A stretch of 53,896 bases of DNA from a bacterium. GTDB lineage: Bacteria; JACRDZ01; JAQUKH01. Where the stretch lies: assembly GCA_028719205.1 (NCBI GenBank), contig JAQUKH010000017.1:1-53896 (forward strand), given 5' to 3'. Under the pieces are notes generated by a model. That model worked only from the letters and a program-made list of their open reading frames with translations. It made no database searches and was not told the origin of the DNA. A program made the position numbers and the translations under genes. The stretch's first letter is position 1. Each line of letters begins with the position of its first letter. Below are positions 1,376-46,032 of the stretch, piece by piece.

Positions 1376-2976
1376 TTTGTTATGTCCCGAACTTGTTGTT
1401 CGGGGGAACAACGAGAAAATTCTGAGCGAATTTTATCCCCATTTTTTTCCTCCTTCGCCGAGGCTTCCTCCGCCGTTAAAACTGTGGAGAATAAGTCCCC
1501 GCCCCCGCCGAATAAAAAATCATTTACTCCATCAGAGAATTTTTCATCCCGCTGGACATGCTGAGGATTTACAAAGCTTTTGTTATTGATGGAAACAGGC
1601 TTTATTTTGTTGCAATTTCCGACAGGACAAGCCAACAAAGTCGGTGGTAAACCCTTTGGAGAGGCTGTTAGAGGACGAAGTCCTCTATCGGGGCTTATTT
1701 CAATTGAATTCGCTGAAAAATCCTTGAAATAATTAAGATTTATTTGGATTTGCGAGGGGGAATAAATTATATTTTTAATGAATTTTTTAATGAATAGATT
1801 TTTATCAATTCCCCGTTTTTGAGGAAGGGTTTTTGTGAGGTGAGTGAGGGTTTGGGCGACAATTTCAGGGGAAATTGTCAGGGGGTCGGACGGCAGTTCG
1901 ACTCCCGAATGGGCACCCAATACCCCCGAATTCAGGGTAAAAATCAAACTCTCGAGATATTGCTTATCAATAGCGATTCTTTCTAAATTATCGAAGATAT
2001 ATCTTTCAATCCGGTCGGCACTTACTTCCTTTGTCATACAACTTTGCCAATCTTTTTTGACTATTTTTGTACAGCGGTAATAGTAATATCGTTTAAGTTT
2101 ATTTTCTTTTCTCTTGTTTGTAAAACATGGTGTCATTGTTGAACCGCATTCCTTGCATTTTATCAGCCCTGCCAGAGAATAATTTTTATATACTTTCATT
2201 TTTACTATTTTCTGTTTGTGTAAACTTTGCGCGAAATTGAAAACATCATCGGAAATTATAGGTTTATGAATTCCTTGAGATATTTTGCCTGCGTATCTAA
2301 GTTTCCCTATATAAACTGGATTTCTCAGTATTAGAAATATTTTGTTTTTTGGTAAGTCTGTTTCTTTGGCAATAGTTGTAACAAAGCTTCCGGTTATATA
2401 TTTTTCATAAATTGAACGTACAATTTCAACTTTATCTTTGTCAACAACAAGCTTTTTATTTTCAGCTTTATATCCGAAAGAGGGCTTTGCGCCATTCCAC
2501 ATACCCCTTTGGGCTCGTTCAAGCATTTTGTCTCTGGTTCTTTCGCTGATAAGCTCTCTTTCAAATTGGGCAAAGGTGAGCATTATATTTCTCAATAATC
2601 TGCCGGAGGGAGTGGACGTGTCAAACCGTTCGGTTACGGAAATGAAATCAACGCCATATTTATCAAATAGCTCGATAAGCTGATAAAAATCTCTGGGCGA
2701 CCGGGTTAGCCGGTCTATTTTGTAAGAGATGACAAGGTCTATCTTCTTTTGTTTTACATCTTCCAATATTGCTTGCATAGCCGGGCGGTTGAGATTAGCA
2801 CCAGTGAATCCGGGATCAGAATAGGCCCTGAAAATTTCCATATTTTCTTGGCTATCAATAAATGATCTAATTTTCGCTTCTTGCGCTTCGCACGAATTAA
2901 ATTCAACTTCCGCTTGGCTATCGGTGGAAACCCTCGTATAGATTGCGCATTTTAATTTGAGTGATTTGTCTTGCAT
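1318..2976 (-). CDS. large serine recombinase (site-specific integrase)
   Basis: 552 residues. The N-terminal resolvase domain has the catalytic serine in YTRVSTDSQ (Ser17), then SYKIDRLTRSPRDF and the E-helix stretch FAQFERELISERTRDKM. A recombinase domain with NPVYIGKLRYAGK follows, then a zinc ribbon with Cys274, Cys277, Cys302 and Cys313. Family members integrate and excise phages and mobile islands. From about residue 420 to 510 the tail is low-quality, repeat-like sequence, and the last 15 or so codons are simply tRNA-His read backwards, so the native C-terminus is uncertain. A shorter homologous tail at 6100-6344 lacks about 80 of these residues. Divergent from an Xre regulator, with which it shares a 100-base promoter region. 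Confidence 0.9.
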   Translation of the reverse strand: MQDKSLKLKCAIYTRVSTDSQAEVEFNSCEAQEAKIRSFIDSQENMEIFRAYSDPGFTGANLNRPAMQAILEDVKQKKIDLVISYKIDRLTRSPRDFYQLIELFDKYGVDFISVTERFDTSTPSGRLLRNIMLTFAQFERELISERTRDKMLERAQRGMWNGAKPSFGYKAENKKLVVDKDKVEIVRSIYEKYITGSFVTTIAKETDLPKNKIFLILRNPVYIGKLRYAGKISQGIHKPIISDDVFNFAQSLHKQKIVKMKVYKNYSLAGLIKCKECGSTMTPCFTNKRKENKLKRYYYYRCTKIVKKDWQSCMTKEVSADRIERYIFDNLERIAIDKQYLESLIFTLNSGVLGAHSGVELPSDPLTISPEIVAQTLTHLTKTLPQKRGIDKNLFIKKFIKNIIYSPSQIQINLNYFKDFSANSIEISPDRGLRPLTASPKGLPPTLLACPVGNCNKIKPVSINNKSFVNPQHVQRDEKFSDGVNDFLFGGGGDLFSTVLTAEEASAKEEKNGDKIRSEFSRCSPEQQVRDITNGVADGTRTRGNKIHNLVL

Positions 2977-3272: not shown

Positions 3273-6101
3273 ATGACAAATAATTTTTTATCAAAAGGAT
3301 CTGTTTGGCAAAAATGGGATTTACAAATTCATATTCCCGAAACAAAACTTGCCAATCAATATAAAACAGAAGACAGCACTGATGTTTGGGATAAATTTAC
3401 TGATTGTCTTAAAAATTCTGATGTGTCTGTTTTTGGTATCACTGATTATTTTTCCATTGATGGCTATGTAAAACTTTTAGAGAAAATAAAATCAAACAAA
3501 GATTTTAAGGACAGGGCATTCTTTCCAAATATAGAATTTCGTCTTGATATAAGTACCAACACGAATAGCGAGGAAATCAATATTCACATCCTTTTTGATA
3601 ACAAATGCAAAATTGAAGACGTAAAAACATTTTTATCAAAATTGGAAACGACTAATACTAAAAGTAATGGTTCGCATTATCATTGTACATCTGAAGATTT
3701 AACCAGCTTGGGATATGATAAGGCATGTATATCCTTGAGTAACTTGAAAAAAGCCTTAAAGGAAACCTTTGGAAATGACAAACCCTATCTAATCGCTGGT
3801 GCTTCAAATGGAACTGGTGGCATACGGGCAAATACAAAATCCCCAAGGAAAATGGGATTATCTGACGAGGTAGATAAAGAGTGTGATTTTTTCTTTGGGC
3901 GAGAACAAGACCGAGAATATTTTTTGAAAGAGAATCGTTACGAAAATAAAACTATTAAATCCGTTGCTAAGCCAGTAGTGGCAACTTCCGATTGTCATTC
4001 TTTTGATGATATTGAAAATTTTTTAGGTAAACAATATAAGAAAGGCAATGCGCTGGTTAAAGACATCACTTGGATTAAAGCAGATAAAACTTTTGAAGGG
4101 TTAAGACAAATACTCTTTGAGCCGTTTGACAGGGTTGCGTTTGGCTATGAAAAGCCAGAGGCGAAAAAGTCCTATTTTCTCATTGATAAAGTTCGATTTA
4201 TTGATAATACAGGCCAAGATAACTTCTTATCTGATGCTATTGAAGTCAATCACAATCTGGCCACAATAATTGGAGGAAAATCAACGGGGAAATCTTTATT
4301 ATTGTACTACATAGCCAAGACTGTTGATTTACAAGAAATCAAAAATAGGTTTGTCGATCATCCCTCTGCTACGCAGTATAATTTTGATGAATCGCCGGAT
4401 TTTAATTTTGAGGTTGTATGGGCTGATGGTGAAAGCACTTATCTCAAAAGCATTGAGGGTAGTGATAATGGAAGTGAGAGAAAAATTTTATACATACCCC
4501 AAAATTATCTCAACAAACTTTCAGAGAAAAATGTTAAAAGTCGCGAAACATTAAATAAATTTGTCAAAGATGTTTTATTGCAAGATGAAACAGTAAAAGA
4601 TAAATACGAAAGTAACCTTTCCCAAATAAAAACTCTTTCCAAATCAATTCCGGTTAGTGTTACTAATTTATATCAGATAAAACAGGAAATTGTGGAAATA
4701 GAGGAAAATATTAAACAATTAGGAGAAGAAAAAGGTATCCAAAAATATCTTATGCAGATACAGAAAGAGGCGGACGAAATAAAAAATAAATCTGGTCTTT
4801 CAGAACAAGAGATCAAAGACTATGAAAAATTTCTCGATCAAGAAAAAAAAGTTACGACTGGCATTTCAATTTTGTTTGAAGACAAAAAAAGTATTGCTCT
4901 ATTCAAACAAAACATTTTACATCAATTAGAAAGCTTGGAAGAATTGAGGGACGAGCAACCCGATTATATGGGTGATGAAACTATTATAAGCGAATTTATT
5001 AAAGAATTTGGCATTTTGGGGCAGATAAAAACAAATATTTTGGCTTCGGTGGATAAAATAACAGTATCTATTGACGCAAAACTTGAAGCCAACAAAAAGG
5101 AACTGGAAAAAATCAAAAAAGATCTTGCACCATTTATGGCTAAGGTCAAATTACAGGATGAACTAAGGAAAAAGAACGATGCAATTAAAGAAGAACAAAA
5201 AAAGCTGAACAAAATTTCCCTTGAAAAGAAAGGGCTTGCGTCAAAAAGAGGCAATTACGAAAAAGAAAAGAAATTTCTCATTGAAACATATAGAAATATT
5301 TTTATTGTTTATGATGCAACGAGAAACGAATTTAAAAAATACGAGAATAATTTTGAGGATATATCTTTGAATGTCTCTGTTGGGTTCAATGAGCAGAGAT
5401 TTAACGATGAAGTTATACATGGTAGTTTAAATAAACCGGATATAAAGCGATGTATTGATGGCGTTGATTGGAAAGACGAGTATGAATATCAATATGATCC
5501 AAATAATCACATAGCATTTATTTTGGCTGTTTTTAACGCTGTAGTTGACGGAAAAATTAAAACCATCAAAAACAAATCACCAAAAGACACCATTGTGAAA
5601 ATTCTTGAAGATTATTTTGATCTTGATTTCAAAATATCTTATAAAAACGATTCACTAGACAAAATGTCACCGGGTAAAAAAGGACTTGTTCTCTTGCGCC
5701 TATTAATTGATTTAAGTAGTGAGGAGTGGCCGATTCTTCTTGATCAGCCAGAGGACGATTTGGACAATAGATCGGTTTACGATGACTTGGTTTCTTTTGT
5801 GAAAAAAAAGAAGAAGCAGAGACAAATTATTATCGTTACACACAATCCCAACTTAGCTGTTGGAGCTGATGCGGAGGAAGTAATTGTGGCTAATCAAGAT
5901 GGACAGGAAAAAGGAAGAGAAAATAAGAAGTACAAATTTGAGTATGTTTCCGGTGCGCTAGAAAATACTTTTGAATTATCAGAAACAGAACAAAAAGCTA
6001 TATTATTTAGGAAGGGTATACGTCAACATGTTTACGAAGTATTAGAAGGAGGAAAAGAAGCCTTTCAAAAACGAGAAAGAAAATATAGTTTTCATTCTTA
6101 G
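3273..6101 (+). CDS. PHP-domain plus SMC-like ATPase (TrlF-like), putative defence protein
   Basis: 942 residues. The N-terminal 290 look like a PHP metal-dependent phosphoesterase: WDLQIH (Asp16, His20), GITDYF (Asp58), PNIEFR (Glu88), INIHILFD (His105) and TSDCH (Asp240, His242). Then comes an ABC/SMC-type ATPase with Walker A IIGGKSTGKS (334-341), a long Lys/Glu-rich coiled coil over about 450-680, a signature-like region DKMSPGKKGLVLLR, Walker B PILLDQPEDDLDNR and an H-loop IIIVTHNPNLAVGAD. This architecture matches what is called the TrlF family of AAA-like ATPases. A nuclease or phosphatase driven by a DNA-sensing ATPase is inferred. The C-terminus looks complete and stops exactly at the recombinase relic. 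Confidence 0.82.
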   Translation: MTNNFLSKGSVWQKWDLQIHIPETKLANQYKTEDSTDVWDKFTDCLKNSDVSVFGITDYFSIDGYVKLLEKIKSNKDFKDRAFFPNIEFRLDISTNTNSEEINIHILFDNKCKIEDVKTFLSKLETTNTKSNGSHYHCTSEDLTSLGYDKACISLSNLKKALKETFGNDKPYLIAGASNGTGGIRANTKSPRKMGLSDEVDKECDFFFGREQDREYFLKENRYENKTIKSVAKPVVATSDCHSFDDIENFLGKQYKKGNALVKDITWIKADKTFEGLRQILFEPFDRVAFGYEKPEAKKSYFLIDKVRFIDNTGQDNFLSDAIEVNHNLATIIGGKSTGKSLLLYYIAKTVDLQEIKNRFVDHPSATQYNFDESPDFNFEVVWADGESTYLKSIEGSDNGSERKILYIPQNYLNKLSEKNVKSRETLNKFVKDVLLQDETVKDKYESNLSQIKTLSKSIPVSVTNLYQIKQEIVEIEENIKQLGEEKGIQKYLMQIQKEADEIKNKSGLSEQEIKDYEKFLDQEKKVTTGISILFEDKKSIALFKQNILHQLESLEELRDEQPDYMGDETIISEFIKEFGILGQIKTNILASVDKITVSIDAKLEANKKELEKIKKDLAPFMAKVKLQDELRKKNDAIKEEQKKLNKISLEKKGLASKRGNYEKEKKFLIETYRNIFIVYDATRNEFKKYENNFEDISLNVSVGFNEQRFNDEVIHGSLNKPDIKRCIDGVDWKDEYEYQYDPNNHIAFILAVFNAVVDGKIKTIKNKSPKDTIVKILEDYFDLDFKISYKNDSLDKMSPGKKGLVLLRLLIDLSSEEWPILLDQPEDDLDNRSVYDDLVSFVKKKKKQRQIIIVTHNPNLAVGADAEEVIVANQDGQEKGRENKKYKFEYVSGALENTFELSETEQKAILFRKGIRQHVYEVLEGGKEAFQKRERKYSFHS

Positions 6102-6432
6102 TTTCACTCACCTCACAAAATCCCTTCCTCAAAAGCGGGGTGTTGATAAAAATATATTCGTTAAAAAATTTATCAAAGATATAAATTATTCTCCCTCGCA
6201 AATTCAGATAAACCTTTATTATTCTGATATATTTAAAGAAAATGATTATTCATTCTTTGGCGGGGAAAATCAAAAAGATAGGGAGAAAATTCGCTCCGAA
6301 TTTTCTCTTCAAAACACAGAATCAAAAGTTTGTAATATAACAAATGGGGTCGCAAACAATTTTATTCCAAACCGCCAGATTGCGATTATTATACCAAATA
6401 CCATTCATCGTTGTAAGAAAAGGATTTTATAA
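6100..6432 (+). pseudogene. relic of a second serine recombinase C-terminus
   Basis: There is no start codon, but one open frame is clearly related to the tail of the recombinase at 1318-2976. It shares LTHLTKSLPQKRGVDKN, VKKFIKDINYSPSQIQINL, EKIRSEF and ITNGVA, with differences throughout. It is on the opposite strand to the intact gene. The last shared bases (ATAACAAATGGGGT) run into the 389-bp inverted repeat, and the frame continues a further 27 codons inside that repeat. This is the end of a different, decayed element, not a copy made recently from the intact gene. Confidence 0.8.
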
Positions 6433-6733
6433 TATCAGCCGCTCCCGACTGTTATATAAAATAAGCAAAAGCTTATTTCAATTTATAACCCCACCCAACC
6501 ACCCCAAAAGAAGATAAAGGGCTAAAGTCTGACGGCTCAGCCGTATATAAGGAAGCCGACCGTTCCAACAGCAATAGGAACGGTCGGCTACAACCTCGCA
6601 ATTCAGCCCCGAAGATAATATGGGCTGAATTGAATGATTTACCTCACACCGGAAATTCAGTGGCGGGAACTTGCCAAATTACGATTTTGATGGGGAATTT
6701 AATTTTGATTAGATAATATATACAAGGGGGTAT
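6345..6733. repeat. 389-bp inverted repeat, left copy
   Basis: By base-by-base reading I find no mismatch to the reverse complement of 16523-16911. The outer edge is TGGGGTCGC and the inner edge GGGGGTAT; beyond both edges the sequences differ at once. It contains hairpins: AAATAAGC/GCTTATTT (6459-6478), a 13-bp stem AGCCGACCGTTCC with a 10-base loop (6554-6589) and ATTCAGCCC/GGGCTGAAT (6601-6630). It has no convincing gene of its own. The identity of the two copies implies recent duplication, gene conversion or functional constraint. Confidence 0.93.
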
Positions 6734-6754
6734 CCTAAAATTAATTAAATTGAT

Positions 6755-6795
6755 TTTAAAAAAATAAAAAAGGAAGCAGCCTAGACTGCTTCCTT
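6755..6795 (-). terminator. terminator of the JAB/zinc-finger operon
   Basis: On the minus strand a perfect 10-bp stem (AAGGAAGCAG with CTGCTTCCTT, 6-base loop, 6770-6795) is followed by a T-rich run. It lies about 25 bases past the stop of the last gene in the minus-strand operon and just inside the left inverted repeat. Confidence 0.75.
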
Positions 6796-6818
6796 ACGTT
6801 TTTATTTTTTCTGTGCTC

Positions 6819-7211
6819 TCAATCTTTTTGCAGAAGCTTTTTGATGAACGCGTCGGCTTGCTTGAAGGAAATTTCTTTCACCAATTTAACCTTAAATTCT
6901 TTCCTCAGATAATCGGTGGCATCATCGCCAAATATTTTTTTGTTGTTCCTTAACAGCGTATATATAAACTTCGTTTGTTTGGGCGTGATTTTACCTTCCG
7001 GCTTTCCTTCATCGCCATTGTCATTTTCTTCTGCTTTGGAGAGGGGAGTACCTTCTGTTTGTCTTTGGACAGCCTTTTTTGCCAACTCGAATAATTCATC
7101 AATTGTTTCCGGCGCATTTTTAATCTCCATATCGTTTTCCGTTTCAAGGGACACAAAATAGTTTTCGTCATTGTTTTTCAAACCGTAACTTGCCGTAAAT
7201 TTCATATTCAT
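6819..7211 (-). CDS. hypothetical protein with C-terminal helical domain (130 aa)
   Basis: The start was chosen at the ATG whose A overlaps the upstream gene's stop (TGATG), behind AAAGGA. The N-terminal half (about 1-60) is acidic and includes APETIDELFELAKKAVQRQ. A Glu/Gly-rich linker follows. The C-terminal 57 residues (ITPKQTKFIYTLLRNN through FKQADAFIKKLLQKD) resemble a short helical module I recall at the ends of phage and plasmid DNA-metabolism proteins. No catalytic motif is seen and the function is unknown. It is last in an operon of three. Confidence 0.7.
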   Translation of the reverse strand: MNMKFTASYGLKNNDENYFVSLETENDMEIKNAPETIDELFELAKKAVQRQTEGTPLSKAEENDNGDEGKPEGKITPKQTKFIYTLLRNNKKIFGDDATDYLRKEFKVKLVKEISFKQADAFIKKLLQKD

Positions 7212-7453
7212 CACATCCTTTCTGCCGGGAAGCCCAGATACCAAGCTTCTTTTGTAACATCTTCGCCGGGTTGGTGAGAGGTTAGGGGATTAATCTTGCC
7301 GAGACATTTTTTGCACATCAGTCCGTAATCGGTGGAAAAACATTCTTCTTCCGTTATTCCATGTTCATTTACCAGAAATTTATTGCAGTAGTCGCACACC
7401 CTTGGGTCGCCTTCATCGAGCCTAACTTCTATAACAAAAAATGGTTCGCTCAT
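7211..7453 (-). CDS. small zinc-finger protein (80 aa)
   Basis: Two Cys pairs, CDYC and CKKC about 25 residues apart, suggest a single treble-clef or ribbon zinc site; the rest is acidic and featureless. Its start overlaps the JAB gene's stop by four bases and its stop overlaps the next start, so the three genes look translationally coupled. I do not recognise the family. A small DNA- or protein-binding adaptor is possible. Confidence 0.65.
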   Translation of the reverse strand: MSEPFFVIEVRLDEGDPRVCDYCNKFLVNEHGITEEECFSTDYGLMCKKCLGKINPLTSHQPGEDVTKEAWYLGFPAERM

Positions 7454-7980
7454 AACCCAGCCTCCTTTCTTGAATAATAACCGCCTGCCGGAGTGATAAT
7501 CAGATGATCCAGCACGTCTATTTTCAATAACTTGCCGGCTTCATTCAGCATGTCCCATACTCTCAAGTCCTCGTCCGATGGTTTGACTTGACCTCCGGGG
7601 TGATTGTGGATTGTTACAATTGCCGTGGAGCCATTCGCAATCGCCCGTCTGTACACCTCTCTGCAGTGAACCAATGATTTCGCAACAGTTCCCATCGAGA
7701 CCAGTTCTTTTTCAATAATCTTGTTGGCGATATTAAGGTGTAGCACCCACAGGCATTCTCTGTCTATTTTGGCTTCTTCCTTCATCATTTCCGCCACGGC
7801 TGAGGGCGAAATGACGGGTGTCCCGGAAACTTCTTTAACCTGCAAAAATTTGATATTGCAAGCGCGCTTGAGGCCGTTTCTGACAATCTCGTCAATAACC
7901 TTTGTCATTGGCTTGCCTTTTTCTTTACTGAGACGATAAAGTTCCGGAATCAATTCCTCGGAAATTTTTGGACTGTACAT
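7450..7980 (-). CDS. JAB/RadC-like protein with N-terminal ribbon-helix-helix
   Basis: The start at 7980 was chosen because GAGGTGAGAAA precedes that ATG; an upstream in-frame ATG at 8019 would add 13 basic residues. Residues 1-38 (ISEELIPELYRLSKEKGKP, then MTKVIDEIVRNGL) resemble a ribbon-helix-helix DNA-binding fold. The rest is a JAB/MPN domain of the RadC type with IHNHPGG and PSDED, the His-x-His and Asp metal ligands, followed by DHLIITPAGGYYSRKE. RadC-like JAB proteins are frequent on mobile elements; their biochemical role is unsettled. The direct fusion to a DNA-binding domain is less usual. Confidence 0.8.
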   Translation of the reverse strand: MYSPKISEELIPELYRLSKEKGKPMTKVIDEIVRNGLKRACNIKFLQVKEVSGTPVISPSAVAEMMKEEAKIDRECLWVLHLNIANKIIEKELVSMGTVAKSLVHCREVYRRAIANGSTAIVTIHNHPGGQVKPSDEDLRVWDMLNEAGKLLKIDVLDHLIITPAGGYYSRKEAGL

Positions 7981-8019
7981 TTTCTCACCTCTCTTTCTTT
8001 TTGAATTTTTAATGGGCAT

Positions 8020-8452
8020 GAGATTAGTGTAGTAAGAGGGGATAGAAAATATAAGAGAGATAGAATTGATTAGGTAGGCAAATAAAGAGATAAAAATTGT
8101 GAAATAAACTAGTTTTTTAGTGTTATAATAAAAAATAAGTTTATTAGATAATTCTGCTTAGCTTTGTTTTAGTCATTTTCACATCATTATTTTGGGTTAC
8201 ATATTATGTATTCTGAATTAAAAGGATTCGTGAGATGATTACACAAAAACATTCATTATATCCTCAAATAATTTTAGGCATTAATCTTTTCTTGACATAT
8301 TGTAGAAAAACTAGATCTCCACCTACATATTAAGTCTCAAAAAATTTATATTATAATTACATCAATAAAATAAGTTTAACCAAATATAGATTAAAAAACT
8401 TAACTCTAAAAAGGAGAGCGGATAAGAAATATAATAAGAAAGGAGATGGGAC
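8020..8452. other. intergenic, no gene seen
   Basis: About 430 bases of very AT-rich DNA upstream of the JAB operon. I see no convincing open frame, tRNA or strong hairpin. Several TATAAT-like hexamers could be promoters for the minus-strand operon, but none can be picked out with confidence. Confidence 0.4.
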
Positions 8453-8868
8453 ATGAGATCAAGAAAATCTTGGTCTCGTCTCAATCTTTTTCTTAATAGT
8501 ATCCTTATTCTAATTCGTTTAATATTACTTTTTATTGTTTTGAAAAAAGTTAATATTATTACACGAGAGGAGATACTATCATGCTTATTATTATTTTTCG
8601 AATCCCTTGCGTCTTTGTTGATGATTTGCGAAAATGCCTTTTTCAAATCTCAACAAAAGAAACGCTCGTCAAAGAGGAAAAAAAGAAGGAAGTAGAAATT
8701 GTTGCAAATGAATTTCCCTTTATTTCCTTAAGAGATGAGACGAGACCGATAGTAAATCGGGCGCAGGGTCCTGCTATTAAAGAACGTAGAAGCGGAAGGG
8801 AATTGAGGCATTCTTTTCCCTTCCGGCACGAAATTCAAAATACGGGAGGGATTATTCCCTCCCGTCTC
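8442..8868. other. structured region with nested and long-range inverted repeats
   Basis: Local hairpin GAGATCAAGA/TCTTGGTCTC lies at about 8455-8477. The arm GGTCTCGTCTCAATC (8472-8486) is also complementary, with one bulge, to GATGAGACGAGACC (8734-8747), 250 bases away. Downstream are GAAGGGAA/TTTTCCCTTC (about 8796-8823) and a perfect 10-bp stem ACGGGAGGGA/TCCCTCCCGT (8842-8865). Two short frames with ribosome sites cross it. It could be a regulatory RNA, an attenuator or a replication/transfer origin next to the VirD4-like ATPase gene. Confidence 0.5.
8453..8695 (+). CDS. possible small membrane protein (80 aa)
   Basis: AAAGGAGATGGGAC lies in front of the ATG at good spacing. The product would have one or two hydrophobic stretches (LFLNSILILIRLILLFIVL and a second around 44-60) and a strongly basic tail. 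The frame starts inside a hairpin of the structured region and resembles nothing I know. It may be a leader peptide or chance. Confidence 0.3.
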   Translation: MRSRKSWSRLNLFLNSILILIRLILLFIVLKKVNIITREEILSCLLLFFESLASLLMICENAFFKSQQKKRSSKRKKRRK

Positions 8869-8871
8869 TAA
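8581..8871 (+). CDS. possible small ORF across the structured region (96 aa)
   Basis: A GAGGAG sits eight bases before the ATG, but most of the frame runs through hairpins and ends within the last one. The predicted protein has no recognisable motif and a charged, irregular composition. It overlaps the previous small frame. I keep it only because of the ribosome site. Confidence 0.22.
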   Translation: MLIIIFRIPCVFVDDLRKCLFQISTKETLVKEEKKKEVEIVANEFPFISLRDETRPIVNRAQGPAIKERRSGRELRHSFPFRHEIQNTGGIIPSRL

Positions 8872-8930
8872 AAAATAGAAAACTAATATCAATACAAGAT
8901 ATTAATTATATTTGAGCAATTAGCTTCAAT

Positions 8931-10103
8931 TTACTGTACTAATTTTCCGCTAAACCCTCTGCTCGTTACTCCGTCAACCATCAGCCGGATATATATTTCG
9001 TAGTAAGGCAAATAAACGAAATCATTTTTGCCGAATTCCGGGAAGAATTCATTAGCAAGATATTCGGCATCTTCTGCGCTCACCCGGAAAGATATAATAG
9101 TTCCGGCATTGCCGAAAATCGCCCCTCTGGTTTTGTCGTCCAGTTGGTTGAGGTATTGGTTCGCGAGTATAAGGCAGAGCCGGTATTTCCGCACTTGCGA
9201 TAAAATCGAAGAAAAGCTTTCTGTAACGTAGCAGGGGAATTCATCGGCATATAGATAAAAGTCTCTTCTTTGCTCTTCCGGTATATCCGCCCTTGATAAG
9301 GCGGCGAGTTCCAGTTTGGTAGTAAGCATCGCACCCAAAAGAGTGGTGTTATCTTCACCGATTCTTCCTTTGGCTAGATTGACGATGAGTATTTTCCCGC
9401 TGTCCATTATTTCTCTGATATCAAAACTGCTCCTTGGTTTTTCAAAGATTCTTCTGATTTGCGGATTGGATAAAAATTGCCCTACTTTGTTAAGAATGGG
9501 GGAAACCGCTTCTCGGCGAAAAGCGGGGGAATATTTTTCAAATTCCAAATACCAAAATTCCCTCAATTGTTTATCGTATACTTTATTTATTATTTCTTTT
9601 CTGAAATCATCGTCTTGGAGCAACTTCGGAATCCAAAGAATAGTTCCCATTTGCGGAAATTCCAAAATGGTCAGGATTGTGTTTCTCAAAATATGTTCCA
9701 GCCTAGGCCCCCAAAAATCTTTCCAAATTTTTCTTGCGATGCTTATAAATCCCGAAGCGATAAGATATTTGTCTTCGGGTTTTTTGTATTCCAGAATATT
9801 AAAGTTAATTTGATGATTGGTGTCTCCGGGGTTGAAATAGATAACATCGTCTTTTCTTTCTTCGGGAATCATTTCCAAGACTTTTTCCGCCAAGTCTCCG
9901 TGCGGATCAATCAAACAAAAGCCTTCGTTATTGGATATATCCGACCGCATTAATTGAGAAATGAGAGTAGACTTGCCCGTGCCGGTTTTGCCCAAAATAT
10001 ACATATGGCCTCTCCGGTCTTTTTTTCTGATGCCGAATCTTTTATGTTCTCCCCGGAAATTCGTTTCAGCGAAAAACGACATTTTGTTTTCAAAATTATC
10101 CAT
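8931..10103 (-). CDS. VirD4/HerA-like DNA-translocating ATPase
   Basis: 390 residues. Walker A GKTGTGKST (38-46), then CLIDPHGDLAEKVL, and Walker B YLYADEFPCY (Asp287, Glu288), followed by ILANQYLNQL and GNAGTIISFRVSAEDAEYLA. This is the type IV coupling-protein/TraM-recognition ATPase core. There is no transmembrane segment, so it is a soluble version. The opening TNFRGEHKRFGIRKKDRRGH is very like ATPases I recall from Patescibacteria. It could pump DNA during transfer, packaging or segregation. No relaxase or secretion-channel gene accompanies it. Codon 1 has only a weak upstream ribosome site. Confidence 0.87.
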   Translation of the reverse strand: MDNFENKMSFFAETNFRGEHKRFGIRKKDRRGHMYILGKTGTGKSTLISQLMRSDISNNEGFCLIDPHGDLAEKVLEMIPEERKDDVIYFNPGDTNHQINFNILEYKKPEDKYLIASGFISIARKIWKDFWGPRLEHILRNTILTILEFPQMGTILWIPKLLQDDDFRKEIINKVYDKQLREFWYLEFEKYSPAFRREAVSPILNKVGQFLSNPQIRRIFEKPRSSFDIREIMDSGKILIVNLAKGRIGEDNTTLLGAMLTTKLELAALSRADIPEEQRRDFYLYADEFPCYVTESFSSILSQVRKYRLCLILANQYLNQLDDKTRGAIFGNAGTIISFRVSAEDAEYLANEFFPEFGKNDFVYLPYYEIYIRLMVDGVTSRGFSGKLVQ

Positions 10104-10291
10104 AGCTTTATCGTAGAGGCTATATATGAGGAAACAAGGGAGGTGGAATTGACGTAGCAGGAGAAAATCAGGGGTTTATCCACAGTTTTATTTTCTTTCT
10201 TTGACTACATAGTCAAATTTATACCTCTTTCGATAATCAAGGCTCTGGTTAGAATTTAATCAGGGTCGATTTTTATTTGTTTTATTTTTTC

Positions 10292-10621
10292 ATGAACATG
10301 ACAAATGAAAAGGTAGGTAAAAAACATCCATTGAGAAATAATATTTGGGTTTTGCGAAAAAAGATGGGGCTAAGCCAGAAAGAGTTAGCGTACGTTATAT
10401 TTCACAAGACTTCATCAATTGTGAATCGTTGGGAAAAAGGTGTCAGCACGCCGGATTCGGAAAGCTTTGTGAAATTAACGATTGCTCTTTCGGTTCCACT
10501 TGAAGCCATTTGGCCGAAACAATACGAACGTTGGCAAATTCCGATTTTGGAACGCAGGAATGAAACCAAGCGTAAGCAGGGGAATGGAGTTTACGAATCA
10601 AATCAACCCTTAATGAAATAA
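10292..10621 (+). CDS. Xre-family helix-turn-helix regulator (109 aa)
   Basis: The HTH stretch LRKKMGLSQKELAYVIFHKT, then SIVNRWEKGVSTPDSESFVKL, is a clear Cro/C1-type domain with the IWPKQYERW tail seen in small regulators of mobile elements. The ATG at 10292 is preferred over a TTG at 10277, and 10298 is also possible. Divergent from the ATPase gene, with about 190 bases between them that could hold both promoters. Probably controls the element's plus-strand genes. Confidence 0.82.
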   Translation: MNMTNEKVGKKHPLRNNIWVLRKKMGLSQKELAYVIFHKTSSIVNRWEKGVSTPDSESFVKLTIALSVPLEAIWPKQYERWQIPILERRNETKRKQGNGVYESNQPLMK

Positions 10622-10683
10622 GTTATCCACAAAAAAGGTCGAAGAGTTAATTTACTAATCAATTTTTGCCTTCTTTTATCTGT

Positions 10684-10716
10684 ACGTTACGTTATTTATA
10701 TTAACGTTAAACGTTA
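10684..10716. repeat. four ACGTTA repeats (operator or iteron-like)
   Basis: ACGTTA occurs four times in 33 bases (starting at 10684, 10689, 10704 and 10711), with partial dyad symmetry around TTTATATTA. It lies 40 bases before the small gene that leads into the RuvC-like resolvase. This may be a regulator binding site or an iteron-like cluster; four short copies are too few to call an origin. Confidence 0.4.
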
Positions 10717-10758
10717 CGCAATAAAAAATTGTCGGCAAAAATTTTAAAAATCAAAAAT

Positions 10759-10995
10759 ATGCAAAAGAAAAACTTTCAACCGGAAACAAAAGAAGAATTA
10801 TTGGCTTACGACTTGGCTGTTTCTCTAAGAGATATGGATCATATATACGTTTACCTTTCTCTTGTCAGAGAATACACGACCGACAGCCTGCTCAAAATTT
10901 TGGGAGAGGTAAAGGAAATGCCGGAAAGGAAAGTAAGAAAGTCCAAAGGAGCTTTGTTTACATATCTGGCCCGCCACTGTGGGGAAAGGAGATAA
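10759..10995 (+). CDS. small conserved-looking hypothetical protein (78 aa)
   Basis: The ATG at 10759 is preferred; an earlier TTG at 10729 would add ten residues, and neither has a good ribosome site. The sequence FQPETKEELLAYDLAVSLRD and the tail KVRKSKGALFTYLARH resemble small proteins I recall beside RuvC-like nucleases on Patescibacteria elements. Here too a RuvC-like gene follows after 17 bases. No catalytic motif is visible. It may be a partner or recruitment factor for the nuclease. Confidence 0.6.
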   Translation: MQKKNFQPETKEELLAYDLAVSLRDMDHIYVYLSLVREYTTDSLLKILGEVKEMPERKVRKSKGALFTYLARHCGERR

Positions 10996-11012
10996 TTTCG
11001 GAAAATAAAAAT

Positions 11013-11498
11013 ATGAATAAAATTAAAAATATTTTGGCTGTCGATCCGGGCAGTCGTTATCTTGGCGTTGCCGCATTGGAAAACAATCAGCTTGTTTATT
11101 ATGGTGTAAGGAGAATAAAAACAAACCAACTGGCAGGGGAAAGAATTAAGGAAGCGGAAAGAATAATTCAAAAGCTGATTGATTATTATCAGCCTCAAGT
11201 GCTGGCGATTGAAAAACCGTTGTACCATTGGAGTAAACAGTCAAAATTGTTGGATAAAATATGCGTAGTAATCAAAGAAACTGCTAAAGAGAATAAAGTG
11301 AGGGTGAGAGAATTTACACCGGAGCAGATAAGAAAAAGTGTTTGTGGGAATTCAAACGCGACCAGAGAAGAAACGGCAGAGAAGTTATTTTCTAAATTTC
11401 CGGAATCGGGGATGTTTTCGGATAAAAATAAAATCAAGGATAGATATTGGCATCATATATTTGATGCGGTGAGCTTGGCAGAAAGAATATATAAATAA
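11013..11498 (+). CDS. RuvC-like Holliday-junction resolvase
   Basis: 161 residues in an RNase H fold. The catalytic acids are visible in AVDPGSRYLGVA (Asp11), VLAIEKPLY (Glu67) and HHIFDAVSLA (Asp151, preceded by His148-His149). The length matches RuvC and its phage or mobile-element relatives. Chromosomal ruvC normally sits with ruvA and ruvB, which are absent here, so this is an element-borne resolvase, probably for processing replication or recombination intermediates. Resolution of hairpin or inverted-repeat ends would fit the flanking 389-bp repeats, but that is inference. Confidence 0.85.
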   Translation: MNKIKNILAVDPGSRYLGVAALENNQLVYYGVRRIKTNQLAGERIKEAERIIQKLIDYYQPQVLAIEKPLYHWSKQSKLLDKICVVIKETAKENKVRVREFTPEQIRKSVCGNSNATREETAEKLFSKFPESGMFSDKNKIKDRYWHHIFDAVSLAERIYK

Positions 11499-11579
11499 AA
11501 CTTTGCACATGACGTTTTGTATAATCCGTAAATGGCTTTTGGAAAGTGTTTATTAGTATTAATACTTTGATTAAACTAT

Positions 11580-13403
11580 TTATTGCTGAGTGTATTTTAA
11601 TATTTTTATTACATATTTTAGTAAATAAGGAGCAAATGTTAAAGTAACTGACAATAAATAGTTAATCGTACTATTGATATCCATAACAGAGTCAGGTGAT
11701 TGTCTAATGTTATGATATAAGGCAATTTTTTTGTTAATTGTTTCTTCTTTTTCTCCTGCTATAAACATCGAATCTATTTTTATTCTTAGTTCTGCCAATG
11801 ATTGATCCTTTTGTTTTTTTACTATTTGAATAAGCCAATATTGAGGGAAAAAAGTAATTGAAATTGCTGCGCTGATAGATAAACTAAATATAAAACTAGT
11901 AGCATAAACAATCTGCGGAGAAGAAATTTTGTTGATATAATAAAAAAGAGGAAATAAAAGCAATACTAATCCAACAATTGATTTTAACGCACAGCTAGCA
12001 AGTAAAGCACTTAGTTCACTAATAGCCGGGGTGTCAGCGGGAGAATACCAACATAATGATAAGTTAGCCATTGATTTTACTCGGTAAAAATATAATGTCC
12101 CTACCCAAAACAAATAAACCGCGTTCATTCCTAAAAAAGCATTCAAAAAAACTTGGAAATAAGATGCAAATCCAAATTTGACAAACTTAGAAAAAAATGG
12201 AGAAAGATAGTATAGAATAGTTATTCCAACAATACCGGTTATAAAGCTAGAAATAATTTGCTTCTTCAGATTTATATACTTATTTATTAAATCAATTAAC
12301 AACTTTTTATTTGTTTCGGTAGCAAGTAAATTATTAATATGTTCTGTTAATTTGATCAATGATAGCCATGCGGTCTGAGAAAATTTAAGTAAACAATATG
12401 TTAGAGTTGTATAAAACAATACCCAACATAAAGCTGTTCCCGCAGTATGGAAATTAACATAAAAAAACGGTAAATCTAAAAATAAGGGTGAAATAGTTAT
12501 AGTAAATATAGCGTAATCAGCAGATAGTGGGAAGTCTATTAATTTAGAAATATAATAATCAACTTTCCGAGTAATTCTTATTAATAGAACTTTTTGAGTT
12601 GAAGTTGACATCAAGATATCCAATGATGAATTTAGCTTCTTTTTCCCGAGGCCATTACGATAATTATCAAACGTATTAAAATTTGATAATATTTTTTTAA
12701 CATTATTATTTTTAAATGACGATAATGAAGTAAAACTATATCCAGAAACCATCTCGTAAAATACTCCTCCGACAACTCCCCAAGAAAAATCCCACAAGAA
12801 CTCTTCAATATTTAATCCATATATGACTATCCCTGATGGATTACAGTTTTTACACCATAATTCTCCAAGATTCGGAACAAGTTGAAACATGATTTGATAA
12901 ATAATGAAAAATAAAATTGATATAAATAGTCCGGATATTAATGAAGGAACAATGAGGTCTTTTCTGAGACGCCAGATAATAATAGTTAAAAAACAAAATG
13001 CAATTATTGTGACAACAACTGAATTTATTTTGAGGAAGCTGGAAAATAAGGTAAGGGAGCCTAGTACAACCGCAAGGGCGAAGAATATAAACCAAATTCG
13101 GCTTTTATATTGTTTTTTCTCGGAATTAGTTAGATTAAATACTATTTTATAGATGCCATAAGTAATACCACCTAAAGCAAAAGTAAAAATTAAATCTTCT
13201 ATGTTAATAAAAAATTTTGTAATTGTTAATGGAGCCCAATAATCTTTAAAATACCAAATTTCGGATATTGGACCTATTGGGCAGAGAATTATACTTACAA
13301 ACAAAAGTTTTTTTCTTAAATCTTTTCTAAAGAGCCAAATAAGAGACCATATAATAAGAAATATGATGCTGTAGATGAAATAAGGATATCTTAATAAATT
13401 CAT
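11580..13403 (-). CDS. polytopic membrane protein with lycopene-cyclase-like N-terminal half
   Basis: 607 residues with many hydrophobic segments. In the N-terminal 230, GPISEIWYFKDYWAP, NIEDLIFTFALGG and LNIEEFLWDFSWG repeat the pattern of bacterial C-type lycopene cyclases, in which paired acidic residues follow a Trp-Tyr-Phe segment. A short Cys motif (WCKNCNP) lies between them. The C-terminal half (about 290-600) is a separate bundle of some seven membrane spans that I do not recognise, containing WYSPADTPAISELSALL. Carotenoid cyclisation is not implied: no other carotenoid gene is near. Convergent with the RuvC-like gene. Confidence 0.6.
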   Translation of the reverse strand: MNLLRYPYFIYSIIFLIIWSLIWLFRKDLRKKLLFVSIILCPIGPISEIWYFKDYWAPLTITKFFINIEDLIFTFALGGITYGIYKIVFNLTNSEKKQYKSRIWFIFFALAVVLGSLTLFSSFLKINSVVVTIIAFCFLTIIIWRLRKDLIVPSLISGLFISILFFIIYQIMFQLVPNLGELWCKNCNPSGIVIYGLNIEEFLWDFSWGVVGGVFYEMVSGYSFTSLSSFKNNNVKKILSNFNTFDNYRNGLGKKKLNSSLDILMSTSTQKVLLIRITRKVDYYISKLIDFPLSADYAIFTITISPLFLDLPFFYVNFHTAGTALCWVLFYTTLTYCLLKFSQTAWLSLIKLTEHINNLLATETNKKLLIDLINKYINLKKQIISSFITGIVGITILYYLSPFFSKFVKFGFASYFQVFLNAFLGMNAVYLFWVGTLYFYRVKSMANLSLCWYSPADTPAISELSALLASCALKSIVGLVLLLFPLFYYINKISSPQIVYATSFIFSLSISAAISITFFPQYWLIQIVKKQKDQSLAELRIKIDSMFIAGEKEETINKKIALYHNIRQSPDSVMDINSTINYLLSVTLTFAPYLLKYVIKILKYTQQ

Positions 13404-13632
13404 GATAATAATTATATCACCAATTTTGTTGGTGGTATTATGTTAAAATTATTTATTAATAATTTTATATATTTTTACCTTGACACCCACTTCCTTTCGG
13501 TAGTAAAATCGCTTTAACATAGTTCATCTTTGATAAATAAGATGAACCGTGTTCCTCGCTAAGTTTTTCTCAAAAAAATCCAAAAAAGTTATACGCTATC
13601 AGTCTAATTTCAATTTAAAACTATTTTAATCA

Positions 13633-14409
13633 ATGAAGTTTGTCCGCAATGCTATTGGTCTGTATTGTTGCCGAAAATTTAAGAGAAATATTCCAACTTC
13701 TTCATTTATCCGCGTACTATCAACCCTTTTCCAATTCATGTCTTTTCTCTTTCAGTTCATAAAATTTATCAAAGGTGAACCGCCAAAACACAGAAGGAGC
13801 TACTCTCCGGTGATTGACGAAAGCAAATGCTTGACTTTGGCCCAAGTAAGAAAACTGCGCCAACGCTGTAAAGAGGCGGCTCGTAAAACTATTAGATTCT
13901 TTTATATCCGGGACTGGTTCATGATTGAGCTCGGTCTTTTTTGCGGTTTGAGGGTTTCGGAGATGACAAATCTGAAGATAGCCGACTTGAATATACAAGA
14001 CAAACAATCTTCATTGGTTATAAGGCATGGCAAGGGAGATAAGGCGCGGATTGTGTATTTCAGCCCGGAATTCAAGAATATTTGTCGCTTATTTCTCGAA
14101 CAGAAAAAGGAAAGCGGCCAGTCAACCGGCAAAGAAGACTGGCTGTTGAGCAATGATTCTGGGAATCAATTAACGACAAGAGCCTTGCAGAAGGCATTTA
14201 AACGCTGTCTATTGAAAGCTGGACTTGAAACCCGTTATGGCATTCACTCGTTGAGGCACACTTATGGAACTCATCTCTACAAAGTGAGTGCGCACAATCT
14301 CAGACTGGTGCAACAGCAACTGGGCCATAGTTCGATAAACACAACGCAAATTTACGCGAGTCTTTTTAACGAGGACGTGAGAGAGGCGGTACGAAAGCTT
14401 TACAGATAG
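13633..14409 (+). CDS. tyrosine recombinase/integrase
   Basis: 258 residues. The catalytic domain is complete: GLRVSEM (Arg107), RHGKGDKAR (Lys134), HSLRHTYGTHL (His205, Arg208), LGHSSINTTQIYA (His232, Tyr241). The N-terminal core-binding domain is short or absent: the first 60 residues are odd and hydrophobic, and the true start may lie further in. The hydrophobic opening could be a remnant of a longer protein. Possible roles are integration of the element or resolution of its dimers. It lies near the right repeat but not at the boundary. Confidence 0.85.
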   Translation: MKFVRNAIGLYCCRKFKRNIPTSSFIRVLSTLFQFMSFLFQFIKFIKGEPPKHRRSYSPVIDESKCLTLAQVRKLRQRCKEAARKTIRFFYIRDWFMIELGLFCGLRVSEMTNLKIADLNIQDKQSSLVIRHGKGDKARIVYFSPEFKNICRLFLEQKKESGQSTGKEDWLLSNDSGNQLTTRALQKAFKRCLLKAGLETRYGIHSLRHTYGTHLYKVSAHNLRLVQQQLGHSSINTTQIYASLFNEDVREAVRKLYR

Positions 14410-14496
14410 GAGGAAAAACAATGTGATGATTAGGGACAGAAAAAAGATTTAGATAAATGTATTTGATTTGAATAAAAAGATTGGAGGGAAAAGAAA

Positions 14497-15645
14497 GTGA
14501 AAAAAGTTATTTTTTCGGTGTTTTGTTTATTAATCTCTTGCGCTCATTTTTCGTTCGCTGAGGATCCGTTGAATACTTGGCATACACGAGCAATAAGCGG
14601 GCCGATTGTCAATGGATCTTACTCAGATAACTTTAATGCCGCGGTTTATGGAAACAACACTTTTCTTATCAAAGACGATGTCGGCCAAATATATACTTCA
14701 CAGGATGGTATCACTTGGACAATCAGCGTAAGTGTATATCCGGGTAATTCCAGTCCGATGGCTAACGTAAACCATATAATTTATGCTAACGGTATGTTTG
14801 TCGCCCCTTATGGAAGTACCATATTCATTTCTTCCGATGGGACTAATTGGACGGCACATTCAACCATTCACGCCGTAAGAATAACTTATGGCAATAATAT
14901 TTTTGCCGGTATTGATTGGAGCGGGATAGCAACATCTTCCAACGGGACTAATTGGACAGAAAGAATAAACAGACCAACTGGGTTATTTGCAGGAGGTTTT
15001 GCAATAGCCTACGGTAGCAATATGTTTGTTGCCATTATGGACAGCAGCACAGTATCCATTTCATCCAATGGCGCAGATTGGACTCAAAAAACATTACAAA
15101 TTGAAGGAGCCGATTATAAAACGCCCGGCGATCCAAGCAATGGCACAGTTGATTATACGTTCGGAGATATGATTTACGGCAACGGCATATTTTTAGTCAC
15201 AGCGCAGGGTGGCTTGAATAACGGTGTAATATTTTCTTCCCTTGACGGCATTAAATGGACAAAAAGGCTATCGGCAAATTATTTCAATGCAATAACTTTC
15301 GGCAAAAATATATTTACGGCCGTGACCGATTACGGCTCAATATTTACTTCAGCCGATGGCATCAAATGGGTGACAAGAAATTCAGGGACAACCTTTCACC
15401 TCAACGACATAGCCTACGGAAACAATACCTTTGTTGCCGTTGGCAAAGGTCCGGCAATACGTCAATCAGACGCACTGGTGCCCGTTGTCCACGATACACC
15501 AATCGGCAATATCGACATCACTTCTGCGGGTTCCTCTGATCGTATTGACGGGCAAGATTTATATTTATTGTCAAAATCGTTTGGTTCCGCGCTTGGAGGC
15601 CCTAAATGGAACTCGTCGATTGATTTGGATGACAACTTCTTATAA
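14497..15645 (+). CDS. secreted beta-propeller-like protein with truncated dockerin-type tail
   Basis: GTG start behind GGAGGG. A signal peptide (KKVIFSVFCLLISCAHFSFA) is followed by six or so imperfect repeats of the type YGNNTFLI...IYTSQDGITWT, an exported propeller pattern. The end, DITSAGSSDRIDGQDLYLL and then WNSSIDLDDN, matches the first half of a type I dockerin-like pair (RVDGYDL...WNPAADLNGDG), but the second calcium loop is cut off. The frame ends by chance right where a headless SIR2-like gene begins, so a deletion or junction at about 15640 probably removed its true C-terminus. The host uses PEP-CTERM exports, so it may be a chromosomal gene captured by the element. Confidence 0.7.
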   Translation: MKKVIFSVFCLLISCAHFSFAEDPLNTWHTRAISGPIVNGSYSDNFNAAVYGNNTFLIKDDVGQIYTSQDGITWTISVSVYPGNSSPMANVNHIIYANGMFVAPYGSTIFISSDGTNWTAHSTIHAVRITYGNNIFAGIDWSGIATSSNGTNWTERINRPTGLFAGGFAIAYGSNMFVAIMDSSTVSISSNGADWTQKTLQIEGADYKTPGDPSNGTVDYTFGDMIYGNGIFLVTAQGGLNNGVIFSSLDGIKWTKRLSANYFNAITFGKNIFTAVTDYGSIFTSADGIKWVTRNSGTTFHLNDIAYGNNTFVAVGKGPAIRQSDALVPVVHDTPIGNIDITSAGSSDRIDGQDLYLLSKSFGSALGGPKWNSSIDLDDNFL

Positions 15646-16454
15646 AAAAGGAAATTAGTGAGTTTGCAAATAAGTTAGAGCTCAGAGCAGGTTATTCAAT
15701 AGATGCCTTTTTAGAAAAATTTAAGAAGAAATATTTAATGATAGGGAAAATGGCTATTGCATATATCCTGACAAAGTATGAAGATAAGCATAAAGCCATA
15801 AAAACTGAAAATTGGTACAGATTTTTATTAAATAAAATGGTAGAGGATACAGAAATTGACACATTTTCCCAAAACAAAGTTTCTTTTGTAACCTTTAATT
15901 ATGATCGTTCACTGGAACATTTTTTATACACTACTTTATCGCATTATAGTGAAGACATTACTTCCCCAAAAGTTATAGAAATTATAAACCAAATACCAAT
16001 TATACATTTATATGGTCAGTTAGATCCGTTACCTTGGCAAGGTGAAAATGGAAGGGAATATGGTGCTCCCTTAGAGGAAAAGCATTTAAGAGGGTATATA
16101 AAAAATCTAAGTATTATTTTTGAAGACATGAATGCTGAAATCGAGTCTAGATTTAAAAATGCTTATGATCTATTAATTAAGGCAGATACAGTTTATATTC
16201 TTGGTTTTGGTTTTGATAGTGATAATATTGCTCGTTTAAAATTAAAAGAAATATTTCCACAAGAAGCAGGTGGGACAGCATATAAATTTGAGAACCAACA
16301 AAAAATTAAAGAAATAAAAGATAAATTTTTCGAAACCGAAAAAAAGATATACAAAGGATTCCTTTTGACAGATAAGTTTCCTCAACAAAAAGGAATTGAG
16401 CTGATAAATGAAACTGTATATGATTTTTTAATAAATCACGCTAAATTGGATTAA
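15646..16454 (+). pseudogene. SIR2-like protein, N-terminus missing
   Basis: The open frame is continuous from about 15633, with sequence related to SIR2-domain proteins from the first codons (ANKLELRAGYSIDAFLEKF, upstream of any good start). SQNKVSFVTFNYDRSLEHFL, IPIIHLYGQLDPLPWQ and VYILGFGFDSDNIARL follow and it ends normally. The N-terminal GAGAS-type NAD site expected in this family is missing. An internal ATG at 15738 exists. SIR2-like proteins of this type are commonly NADases in phage defence; this copy is probably dead. It abuts the broken dockerin protein, marking a rearrangement point. Confidence 0.6.
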
Positions 16455-16522
16455 TAATCAATAATTATCCCTACAAATACCTATACAAACAGGATATAAA
16501 AACCTATACAATCAATGTATAA

Positions 16523-16911
16523 ATACCCCCTTGTATATATTATCTAATCAAAATTAAATTCCCCATCAAAATCGTAATTTGGCAAGTTCCCGCCACTGAA
16601 TTTCCGGTGTGAGGTAAATCATTCAATTCAGCCCATATTATCTTCGGGGCTGAATTGCGAGGTTGTAGCCGACCGTTCCTATTGCTGTTGGAACGGTCGG
16701 CTTCCTTATATACGGCTGAGCCGTCAGACTTTAGCCCTTTATCTTCTTTTGGGGTGGTTGGGTGGGGTTATAAATTGAAATAAGCTTTTGCTTATTTTAT
16801 ATAACAGTCGGGAGCGGCTGATATTATAAAATCCTTTTCTTACAACGATGAATGGTATTTGGTATAATAATCGCAATCTGGCGGTTTGGAATAAAATTGT
16901 TTGCGACCCCA
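16523..16911. repeat. 389-bp inverted repeat, right copy
   Basis: The reverse complement of 6345-6733, with no difference found by eye. The outer edge is GCGACCCCA at 16911, followed by unrelated ATTCCTTTC. The outer flanks of the two copies (AAA before the left, ATT after the right) give no target-site duplication. It carries the same three hairpins in mirror order. Confidence 0.93.
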
Positions 16912-17001
16912 ATTCCTTTCAATCTATAGTTTTTCCTAGTATTATTAACTTCATTCTTTAAATCTTATATAATCTCATATAGTTAAAATATGAGGTAAAT
17001 T

Positions 17002-45841: not shown

Positions 45842-46032
45842 ATTTGCCTTTTTTCTACAAATTAATTGTTTTAAGTATAGTCGAAAATAGAATGATATTC
45901 AAGAAAATTGTTTTAATGGATAAACAGATGCGCAGATGTTGGATTTATTTTTATTCCCTTAAATTATTCTTCCAGCAAGAATGAATTAAATTCGGCAAAA
46001 AAATCGGAACAAAATTTGAATTTAAATCAAAT

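What the first reader, a model, noticed from the sequence alone, without database searches (positions are those of the whole stretch)
6345..16911. A 9.8-kb cargo segment enclosed by two identical 389-bp inverted repeats
Left copy 6345-6733, right copy 16523-16911; I read no mismatch, and both edges are sharp. The repeats carry three hairpins each. Inside are recombination and DNA-translocation genes (RuvC-like, VirD4/HerA-like ATPase, tyrosine recombinase, JAB/RadC-like with a DNA-binding head), two regulators and cargo, but no transposase. No target-site duplication is visible. This fits a linear element with long terminal repeats that has integrated, an invertible segment, or a novel transposon-like unit. 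It matches no element class I can name.
Basis: partly seen in the sequence, partly recalled or inferred. Interest (0 to 1): 0.88.

Follow-up and report, generated by a model that had tools for sequence, protein, structure and literature searches.

The report
tRNA island with inverted attachment arms
The two perfect inverted repeats are not the ends of a transposon or a linear element: they are two copies of the attachment arm of a larger mobile island that a serine integrase inserted into a tRNA-His gene, and related islands in other genomes carry the same odd inverted second copy, several of them with defence genes as cargo.

Summary
In detail: 6345-6733 and 16523-16911 are perfect 389-bp inverted repeats, found nowhere else in this genome. 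The unit is misread. The element is a 15.5-kb island, 1376-16911, next to tRNA-His (1299-1375). Its large serine integrase (1318-2976) reads into the tRNA. The right repeat's outer tip is the island's attR. The left repeat's tip continues in frame from a duplicated integrase 3' end (6097-6344), so it is an intact, inverted attP. The repeat ("arm") encodes the integrase's native C-terminal tail (PNTIHxCKK). Arm tips match the target tRNA's 3' end where that tRNA is seen. Six further islands carry the inverted integrase-3'-end duplicate; four of these show an arm. Between the arms lie 9.8 kb here, 165-530 bp, or restriction-modification genes. Three distant integrases lack the duplicate. So the excised circle would carry two inverted attP modules, with int on one side and a cargo slot on the other. 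I think the arms recombine, flipping or exchanging cargo and staying identical; that function is inferred, the architecture is shown. It is not an assembly artefact or a transposon. New variant of a known kind.

The parts
1299..1375 (+). tRNA-His, integration target; its 3' end ...CCACCCCA is the B half of attL
   Evidence: ARAGORN; junction sequence
1367..1384 (+). attL: CCACCCCA|TTTGTTAT
   Evidence: Same CCCCA|TTTGTTAT junction as at 6353-6336 on the minus strand
1318..2976 (-). Large serine integrase, 552 aa; last 15 residues encoded by tRNA-His in the integrated state
   Evidence: Resolvase + Recombinase + Zn-ribbon Pfam domains; 562-aa native form when the attP is rejoined in silico
3273..6101 (+). 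TrlF-family AAA-like ATPase, probable defence gene, on the integrase side of the island
   Evidence: NCBIfam NF045780 540.6 bits, above cut-off
6097..6344 (+). Inverted duplicate of the integrase 3' end (P' side of the second attP)
   Evidence: 88% nt to 1728-1847, 76% to 1367-1448; 68% aa to the integrase C-terminus; in frame into the left arm
6345..6733 (+). Left arm (389-bp repeat): P arm of the inverted attP; first ~85 bp encode the integrase native tail
6819..7244 (-). 141-aa protein, C-terminus resembles a small protein of the G098 element
   Evidence: No family hit; similarity by eye
7450..8019 (-). RadC JAB-domain protein; phrog_3887 regulator hit at its N-terminus
   Evidence: Pfam RadC 4.4e-35; phrogs
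8931..10103 (-). VirD4/HerA-type ATPase, 390 aa
   Evidence: TrwB_AAD_bind 1.2e-14; 80% identical copy in G003
10277..10621 (+). Xre-type HTH regulator
   Evidence: Pfam HTH_3
10729..10995 (+). 88-aa remnant matching the C-terminus of a 252-aa HTH_36 protein of IMG/VR element G098
   Evidence: tblastn 34%, 2e-10; Pfam of the full protein
11013..11498 (+). RuvC-like resolvase
   Evidence: Pfam RuvC 3.6e-14; same order in G098
11580..13403 (-). 607-aa membrane protein, cargo
   Evidence: Pfam Lycopene_cyc 3.9e-7
13633..14409 (+). XerCD-like tyrosine recombinase, about 50 residues shorter than XerC at the N-terminus
   Evidence: Pfam Phage_integrase 1.8e-33; TIGR02224 aligned from position 50
15738..16454 (+). 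SIR2-like fragment
   Evidence: Pfam SIR2_2 2.4e-4
16523..16911 (-). Right arm (389-bp repeat): P arm at the island's right end
16903..16920 (+). attR: GCGACCCCA|ATTCCTTTC, same orientation as the tRNA-His 3' end
   Evidence: Junction sequence
45950..46041 (-). Solo arm of the same family, attR of a separate island at tRNA-Asn (41683-41758)
   Evidence: CM match E 7.8e-25; tRNA 3'-end/terminator direct repeat 41750-41803 vs 46033-46088, 80%

Best explanation
The repeats are two copies of the P arm of one integrative element, a 15.5-kb serine-integrase island (1376-16911) inserted at the 3' end of tRNA-His. In the excised circle the integrase gene would end inside attP and take its last 25 residues from the P arm; on integration that tail is replaced by one encoded in the tRNA (shown by sequence, not by experiment). 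The island carries a second, inverted copy of the module [integrase 3' end - attP crossover - P arm], with the integrase part truncated and the arm intact. Two inverted modules divide the predicted circle into an integrase side (int + TrlF) and a cargo slot (the 9.8 kb between the arms). This two-module design recurs in a family of islands at several tRNA genes, several with defence cargo. Inferred, not shown: recombination between the modules keeps the arms identical, flips the slot or the integrase side, and lets cargo be swapped; flipping the integrase side would let the integrase switch between its tRNA-encoded and native tails while integrated.
For: Integrase overlaps tRNA-His, and same-genus G001 has this tRNA locus without the island. 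Junctions at 1375 and 6344(-) share ACCCCA|TTTGTTAT; 16911 ends GCGACCCCA in tRNA orientation. Rejoining attL and attR in silico gives one open frame, 562 aa, ending in the same tail as the duplicate + left arm. Tail differences among six arms by codon position 1/2/3 are 87/45/147, a coding signature. Tips of other arms are GGAGCCA, the tRNA-Asn end, and G359 is integrated at tRNA-Asn. Recurrence: G001:C1 inverted arms with about 530-bp spacer beside the duplicate; IMG/VR L152 188-bp arms at 96% around a type III R-M system; L156 one arm then a methyltransferase and probable endonuclease; G359 arms 165 bp apart; G399 and G411 inverted integrase-3'-end duplicates of 88.5% and 100%, contigs ending before any arm. 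Three distant integrases (38-40% identity) show no inverted duplicate within 14-20 kb.
Against: No excision, inversion or exchange was observed. The core shared by attL and attR is only 6 bp (ACCCCA), and the chromosomal B' side cannot be checked because G001 differs downstream of the tRNA. In the window the integrase-3'-end copies are only 76-88% identical while the arms are 100%, so the arms may have been homogenised alone. Both islands with a visible tRNA and arms (G000, G359) show the same isomer, so flipping is not seen. Several relatives are cut by contig borders inside or near the module.
Confidence: 0.72

Rival explanations
1. Accretion relic: two related islands inserted one after the other at the same tRNA and a later inversion turned the P-P' joint between them round. 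The inverted arms are a scar with no function, kept identical by gene conversion.
For: Stepwise insertion at tRNA genes is visible in this window: tRNA-Asn has att copies at 41758, 41979 and 46041. The window's integrase-3'-end copies differ by 12-24%. L152 holds stray integrase fragments inside its slot.
Against: The same inversion would have to happen independently in several lineages with the duplicate on the same side and orientation each time, unless inherited once and maintained.
Confidence: 0.2
2. Transposon or linear element 6345-16911 with long terminal inverted repeats.
For: Perfect 389-bp inverted repeats with sharp outer edges; XerCD-like recombinase and plasmid-like genes inside.
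Against: The left repeat continues an integrase reading frame; tips follow the tRNA target; no transposase, no target duplication; outer flanks are an integrase end and a tRNA-type attR.
Confidence: 0.03
3. Assembly artefact: reads from the excised circle and the integrated copy were joined to give a false inverted repeat.
For: Short-read assemblies handle long perfect repeats badly, and three related contigs begin inside the integrase-end repeat.
Against: Inverted arms or duplicates, several of them diverged (77%, 82%, 88.5%, 96%), occur in different genomes and metagenome contigs; diverged copies cannot be one sequence assembled twice.
Confidence: 0.03

Closest known systems
Large serine recombinase islands and IMEs integrated at tRNA or other conserved genes (e.g. 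Streptococcus ICE/IME, PMC4701971; LSR survey PMC10083194)
   Same: Domain architecture of the recombinase, attL/attR at the borders, integrase next to attL, accessory cargo
   Different: A second inverted attP module with a truncated integrase end inside the island, and a cargo slot between two identical P arms; not found described in the papers searched
Mycobacteriophage BPs integration-dependent immunity (PMC4557955)
   Same: attP lies inside a coding sequence, so integration changes the C-terminus of the protein
   Different: There the repressor is shortened; here the integrase itself would get a tRNA-encoded tail; no effect on activity is known
Yeast 2-micron plasmid and other circles with two inverted repeats carrying the recombinase site (PMC3147054)
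   Same: Circle split by two inverted repeats that hold the recombination site, on an element that encodes the recombinase
   Different: Flp is a tyrosine recombinase acting on two identical FRT sites; serine integrases normally need attP x attB; the island integrates and no replication is shown
Recombinase-mediated cassette exchange with two inverted attP sites (engineered; from general knowledge)
   Same: Cargo flanked by two inverted attP-type sites
   Different: Engineered tool; natural exchange is only suggested here by unrelated cargo in the slot

Membership tests
Large serine recombinase genomic island at a tRNA | Intact large serine recombinase (Resolvase, Recombinase, Zn-ribbon) | tested here: met
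   Pfam 1.5e-39, 1e-7, 3.3e-12; 552 aa open frame
Large serine recombinase genomic island at a tRNA | attL at a tRNA 3' end and attR in the same orientation at the far end | tested here: met
   CCACCCCA|TTTGTTAT at 1375 and GCGACCCCA|ATTCC at 16911; short 6-bp core
Large serine recombinase genomic island at a tRNA | Empty site in a relative | tested here: inconclusive
   G001 has tRNA-Pro/tRNA-His followed by ordinary genes and the same helicase, no island, but differs downstream of the tRNA
Large serine recombinase genomic island at a tRNA | Excision and circularisation | not testable with these tools
   No reads available
Integrative and conjugative/mobilizable element | Relaxase, oriT or a T4SS | tested here: inconclusive
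   Pfam/NCBIfam on the ten main proteins give a VirD4-like ATPase but no relaxase or other T4SS protein above cut-off; oriT was not searched for
TIR transposon | Transposase and target-site duplication | tested here: not met
   No transposase; flanks of 6345 and 16911 differ
TIR transposon | Terminal sequence independent of the target | tested here: not met
   Tips equal the target tRNA 3' end: His here, Asn in G359 and at 46041
Linear plasmid with terminal inverted repeats | Terminal protein, protelomerase or telomere-associated genes | tested here: not met
   None among family hits above cut-off
2-micron-type inverted-repeat circle | Tyrosine recombinase inverting the circle between two repeat-borne sites | tested here: not met
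   The adjoining recombinase is a serine integrase; likeness is topological only

The most novel reading that the evidence does not exclude
These islands are natural two-attP machines. Recombination between two inverted attP modules switches the integrase between a tRNA-encoded and a native tail (controlling excision versus integration) and works as a cassette-exchange slot through which unrelated defence systems are swapped, with both sites kept identical and retargeted together from one tRNA to another.
Probability: 0.22. Interest if true: 0.82.

Novelty: new variant of a known kind. Interest (0 to 1): 0.62.

Why it matters
It corrects the boundaries of the element and exposes a recurring island design, with two inverted attachment modules and a cargo slot, that I did not find described. 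If the modules recombine, it would give a simple natural route for exchanging defence genes at tRNA sites and an integrase whose C-terminus depends on whether and how it is integrated. It also warns that assemblies tend to break inside such islands, because each carries an inverted copy of its own integrase end.

Tried and rejected
Searched the repeat in plasmids (no match). Took the VirD4-like ATPase as the element marker: it is common in Patescibacteria genomes and its contexts there show neither this gene set nor a comparable long inverted repeat around it, so it marks the cargo, not the element. RadC and RuvC scans of viral contigs found nothing. Rfam found nothing in the repeat at gathering thresholds. 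XerCD-like recombinase as the agent of the repeats: no dif-like site recognised in the arm by eye, and the arm encodes the serine integrase tail instead. Literature searches for two-attP islands, truncated-integrase duplicates and natural cassette exchange gave no description of this design; the library lacks most subscription papers.

Full report
What was checked. The two repeats are real and exact: 389 of 389 bases, 6345-6733 against the reverse complement of 16523-16911, with unrelated sequence on both sides. They occur only here in the 2.59-Mb genome and in none of 97 other genomes. The window is contig 17 of its genome; a genome of the same phylum (G003) has a contig of the same length (13,871 bp) and the same ATPase match as a record titled Candidatus Desantisbacteria, so the host is probably of that phylum.

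What lies outside the left repeat. At 1299-1375 there is a tRNA-His, and a 552-aa large serine recombinase (1318-2976, minus strand) runs into it. In same-genus genome G001 the same tRNA-Pro/tRNA-His pair is followed by ordinary genes and then the same helicase, without an island. A TrlF-family ATPase follows (3273-6101). Between its stop codon and the left repeat (6097-6344) is an inverted copy of the integrase's 3' end: 88% identity over 120 bp and 76% over 82 bp, 68% in protein.

The repeat tips are attachment sites. On the plus strand tRNA-His ends CCACCCCA|TTTGTTAT. On the minus strand the left repeat ends GCGACCCCA|TTTGTTAT. On the plus strand the right repeat ends GCGACCCCA|ATTCC. This is what attL, an intact attP and attR should look like, with the repeat as the P arm. 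Joining the attL and attR halves in silico gives one open frame: the integrase becomes 562 aa and ends in ...NGVANNFIPNRQIAIIIPNTIHRCKKRIL, the same tail read through the duplicate into the left repeat. In the integrated state this tail is replaced by DGTRTRGNKIHNLVL, encoded by the tRNA.

The arm is a family. G001 contig 1 has a duplicate of the integrase end whose tail reads ...IILPNTIHACRKKNL, with two inverted arms starting at the crossover, about 77% identical over the aligned part and about 530 bp apart. A sequence model of the arm finds exactly five copies in the four genomes held for this phylum, all at E below 1e-18, with the next match at 0.02. The fifth is in this window at 45950-46041: the right end of another island at tRNA-Asn, with the tRNA's 3' end and terminator repeated at both sides. 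Its tip is GGAGCCA, the tRNA-Asn end. So the tips follow the target tRNA, which a transposon end would not do. Differences among the tails of six arms fall on codon positions 1, 2 and 3 as 87, 45 and 147, so the arm is coding sequence of the integrase.

The architecture recurs. IMG/VR contig IMGVR_UViG_3300045144_000341 (L152) has a 70%-identical integrase, a DUF6680 gene, the inverted duplicate of the integrase end (97% over 59 bp) and 188-bp inverted arms at 96% enclosing a type III restriction-modification system. IMGVR_UViG_3300032118_002834 (L156) has a 56%-identical integrase, small genes, a short duplicate, one arm, then a DNA methyltransferase-like gene and a probable endonuclease (both judged by eye); the contig ends before a second arm. 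G359 contig 71 carries a whole small island at tRNA-Asn: an internally deleted integrase, an HTH gene and a 208-aa gene that looks like a NYN nuclease (by eye), the inverted duplicate (93%) and two arms (82%) only 165 bp apart. G399 contig 46 (integrase reading into tRNA-Ser) and G411 contig 206 show the inverted integrase-end duplicate at 88.5% and 100%; their contigs end before any arm, and no arm was detected there. G411 contig 180 has a close integrase without a visible duplicate; its contig ends about 1 kb beyond the integrase start, so it is uninformative. Three more distant integrases, one near a tRNA-His, have no inverted duplicate in 14-20 kb. The last viral scan with the integrase alignment returned only L152 and L156, both with the duplicate.

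Interpretation. The element is a serine-integrase island whose excised circle would carry two inverted copies of [integrase 3' end, attP, P arm]. One side holds the integrase and one or a few genes; the other is a slot that is empty, or holds R-M genes, or here 9.8 kb. The slot's cargo here includes a plasmid-like set (ATPase, HTH, replication-protein remnant, RuvC) in the gene order of IMG/VR element G098, plus a XerCD-like recombinase and a SIR2 fragment, several of them truncated, so the cargo looks partly decayed. The arms of one island (100%, 96%, 82%, 77%) are in most cases more alike than arms of different islands, which suggests recombination or conversion between them. Tail switching of the integrase by flipping the integrase side, and cargo exchange through the slot, follow from the anatomy but were not observed. 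A relic of two stacked islands with a later inversion is the main rival.

Known comparisons. tRNA-targeted serine-recombinase islands are well known (PMC4701971, PMC10083194). A protein C-terminus changed by integration is known for the BPs repressor (PMC4557955). Circles with two inverted repeats carrying a recombinase site are known from the 2-micron plasmid (PMC3147054). I found no description of the present combination, in a library that lacks most subscription papers.

Limits. No reads were available, so orientation of the segments, excision and isomers are untested. The att core is short. Most relatives are incomplete at contig ends. Functions of the accessory genes rest on family matches only.

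Noticed in passing
window 41683-46041: Insertion hotspot at tRNA-Asn: copies of the tRNA 3' end at 41758, 41979 and 46041, with DUF4160, DUF2442, a PLD nuclease (DrmC-like) and a HepT/nucleotidyltransferase pair between them and a solo arm as right end.
   Followed up: partly
window 8931-10103; L024 1361-2539; L037-L107: The VirD4/HerA-like ATPase is present in many Patescibacteria genomes, 52-57% identical, but 80% identical in another family of the same phylum (G003), where it stands alone between unrelated genes: a sign of horizontal transfer.
   Followed up: partly
L109 8700-14600 (G098): A 58.7-kb IMG/VR element carries ATPase, HTH, HTH_36 replication-like protein, two RuvC-like genes, DUF932 and a PD-(D/E)XK nuclease in one block; the cargo of the window looks like a decayed version.
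   Followed up: partly
window 17895-17926: A ~32-bp sequence (starting TTTTACTCATTGTTGTCCTCGCAGGGGATAAT) recurs at about a dozen other places in this genome at 90-97% identity.
   Followed up: no
window 1-150: The first 150 bases of the window are 99% identical to the end of contig 25 of the same genome: assembly overlap or a repeated gene end.
   Followed up: no
window 17002-17124: Short open frame just right of attR ending ...WSKIAQIDELKGQWVAGAKRL; it looks like a truncated Fic-type protein (by eye, from memory), suggesting an older insertion at the same place.
   Followed up: no
L152 10220-11671: LexA-type repressor/peptidase fused to an N6/N4 DNA methylase domain in one 483-aa frame.
   Followed up: no
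window 1318-1850: The integrase C-terminus holds a stretch of about 70 residues that the duplicates lack.
   Followed up: no
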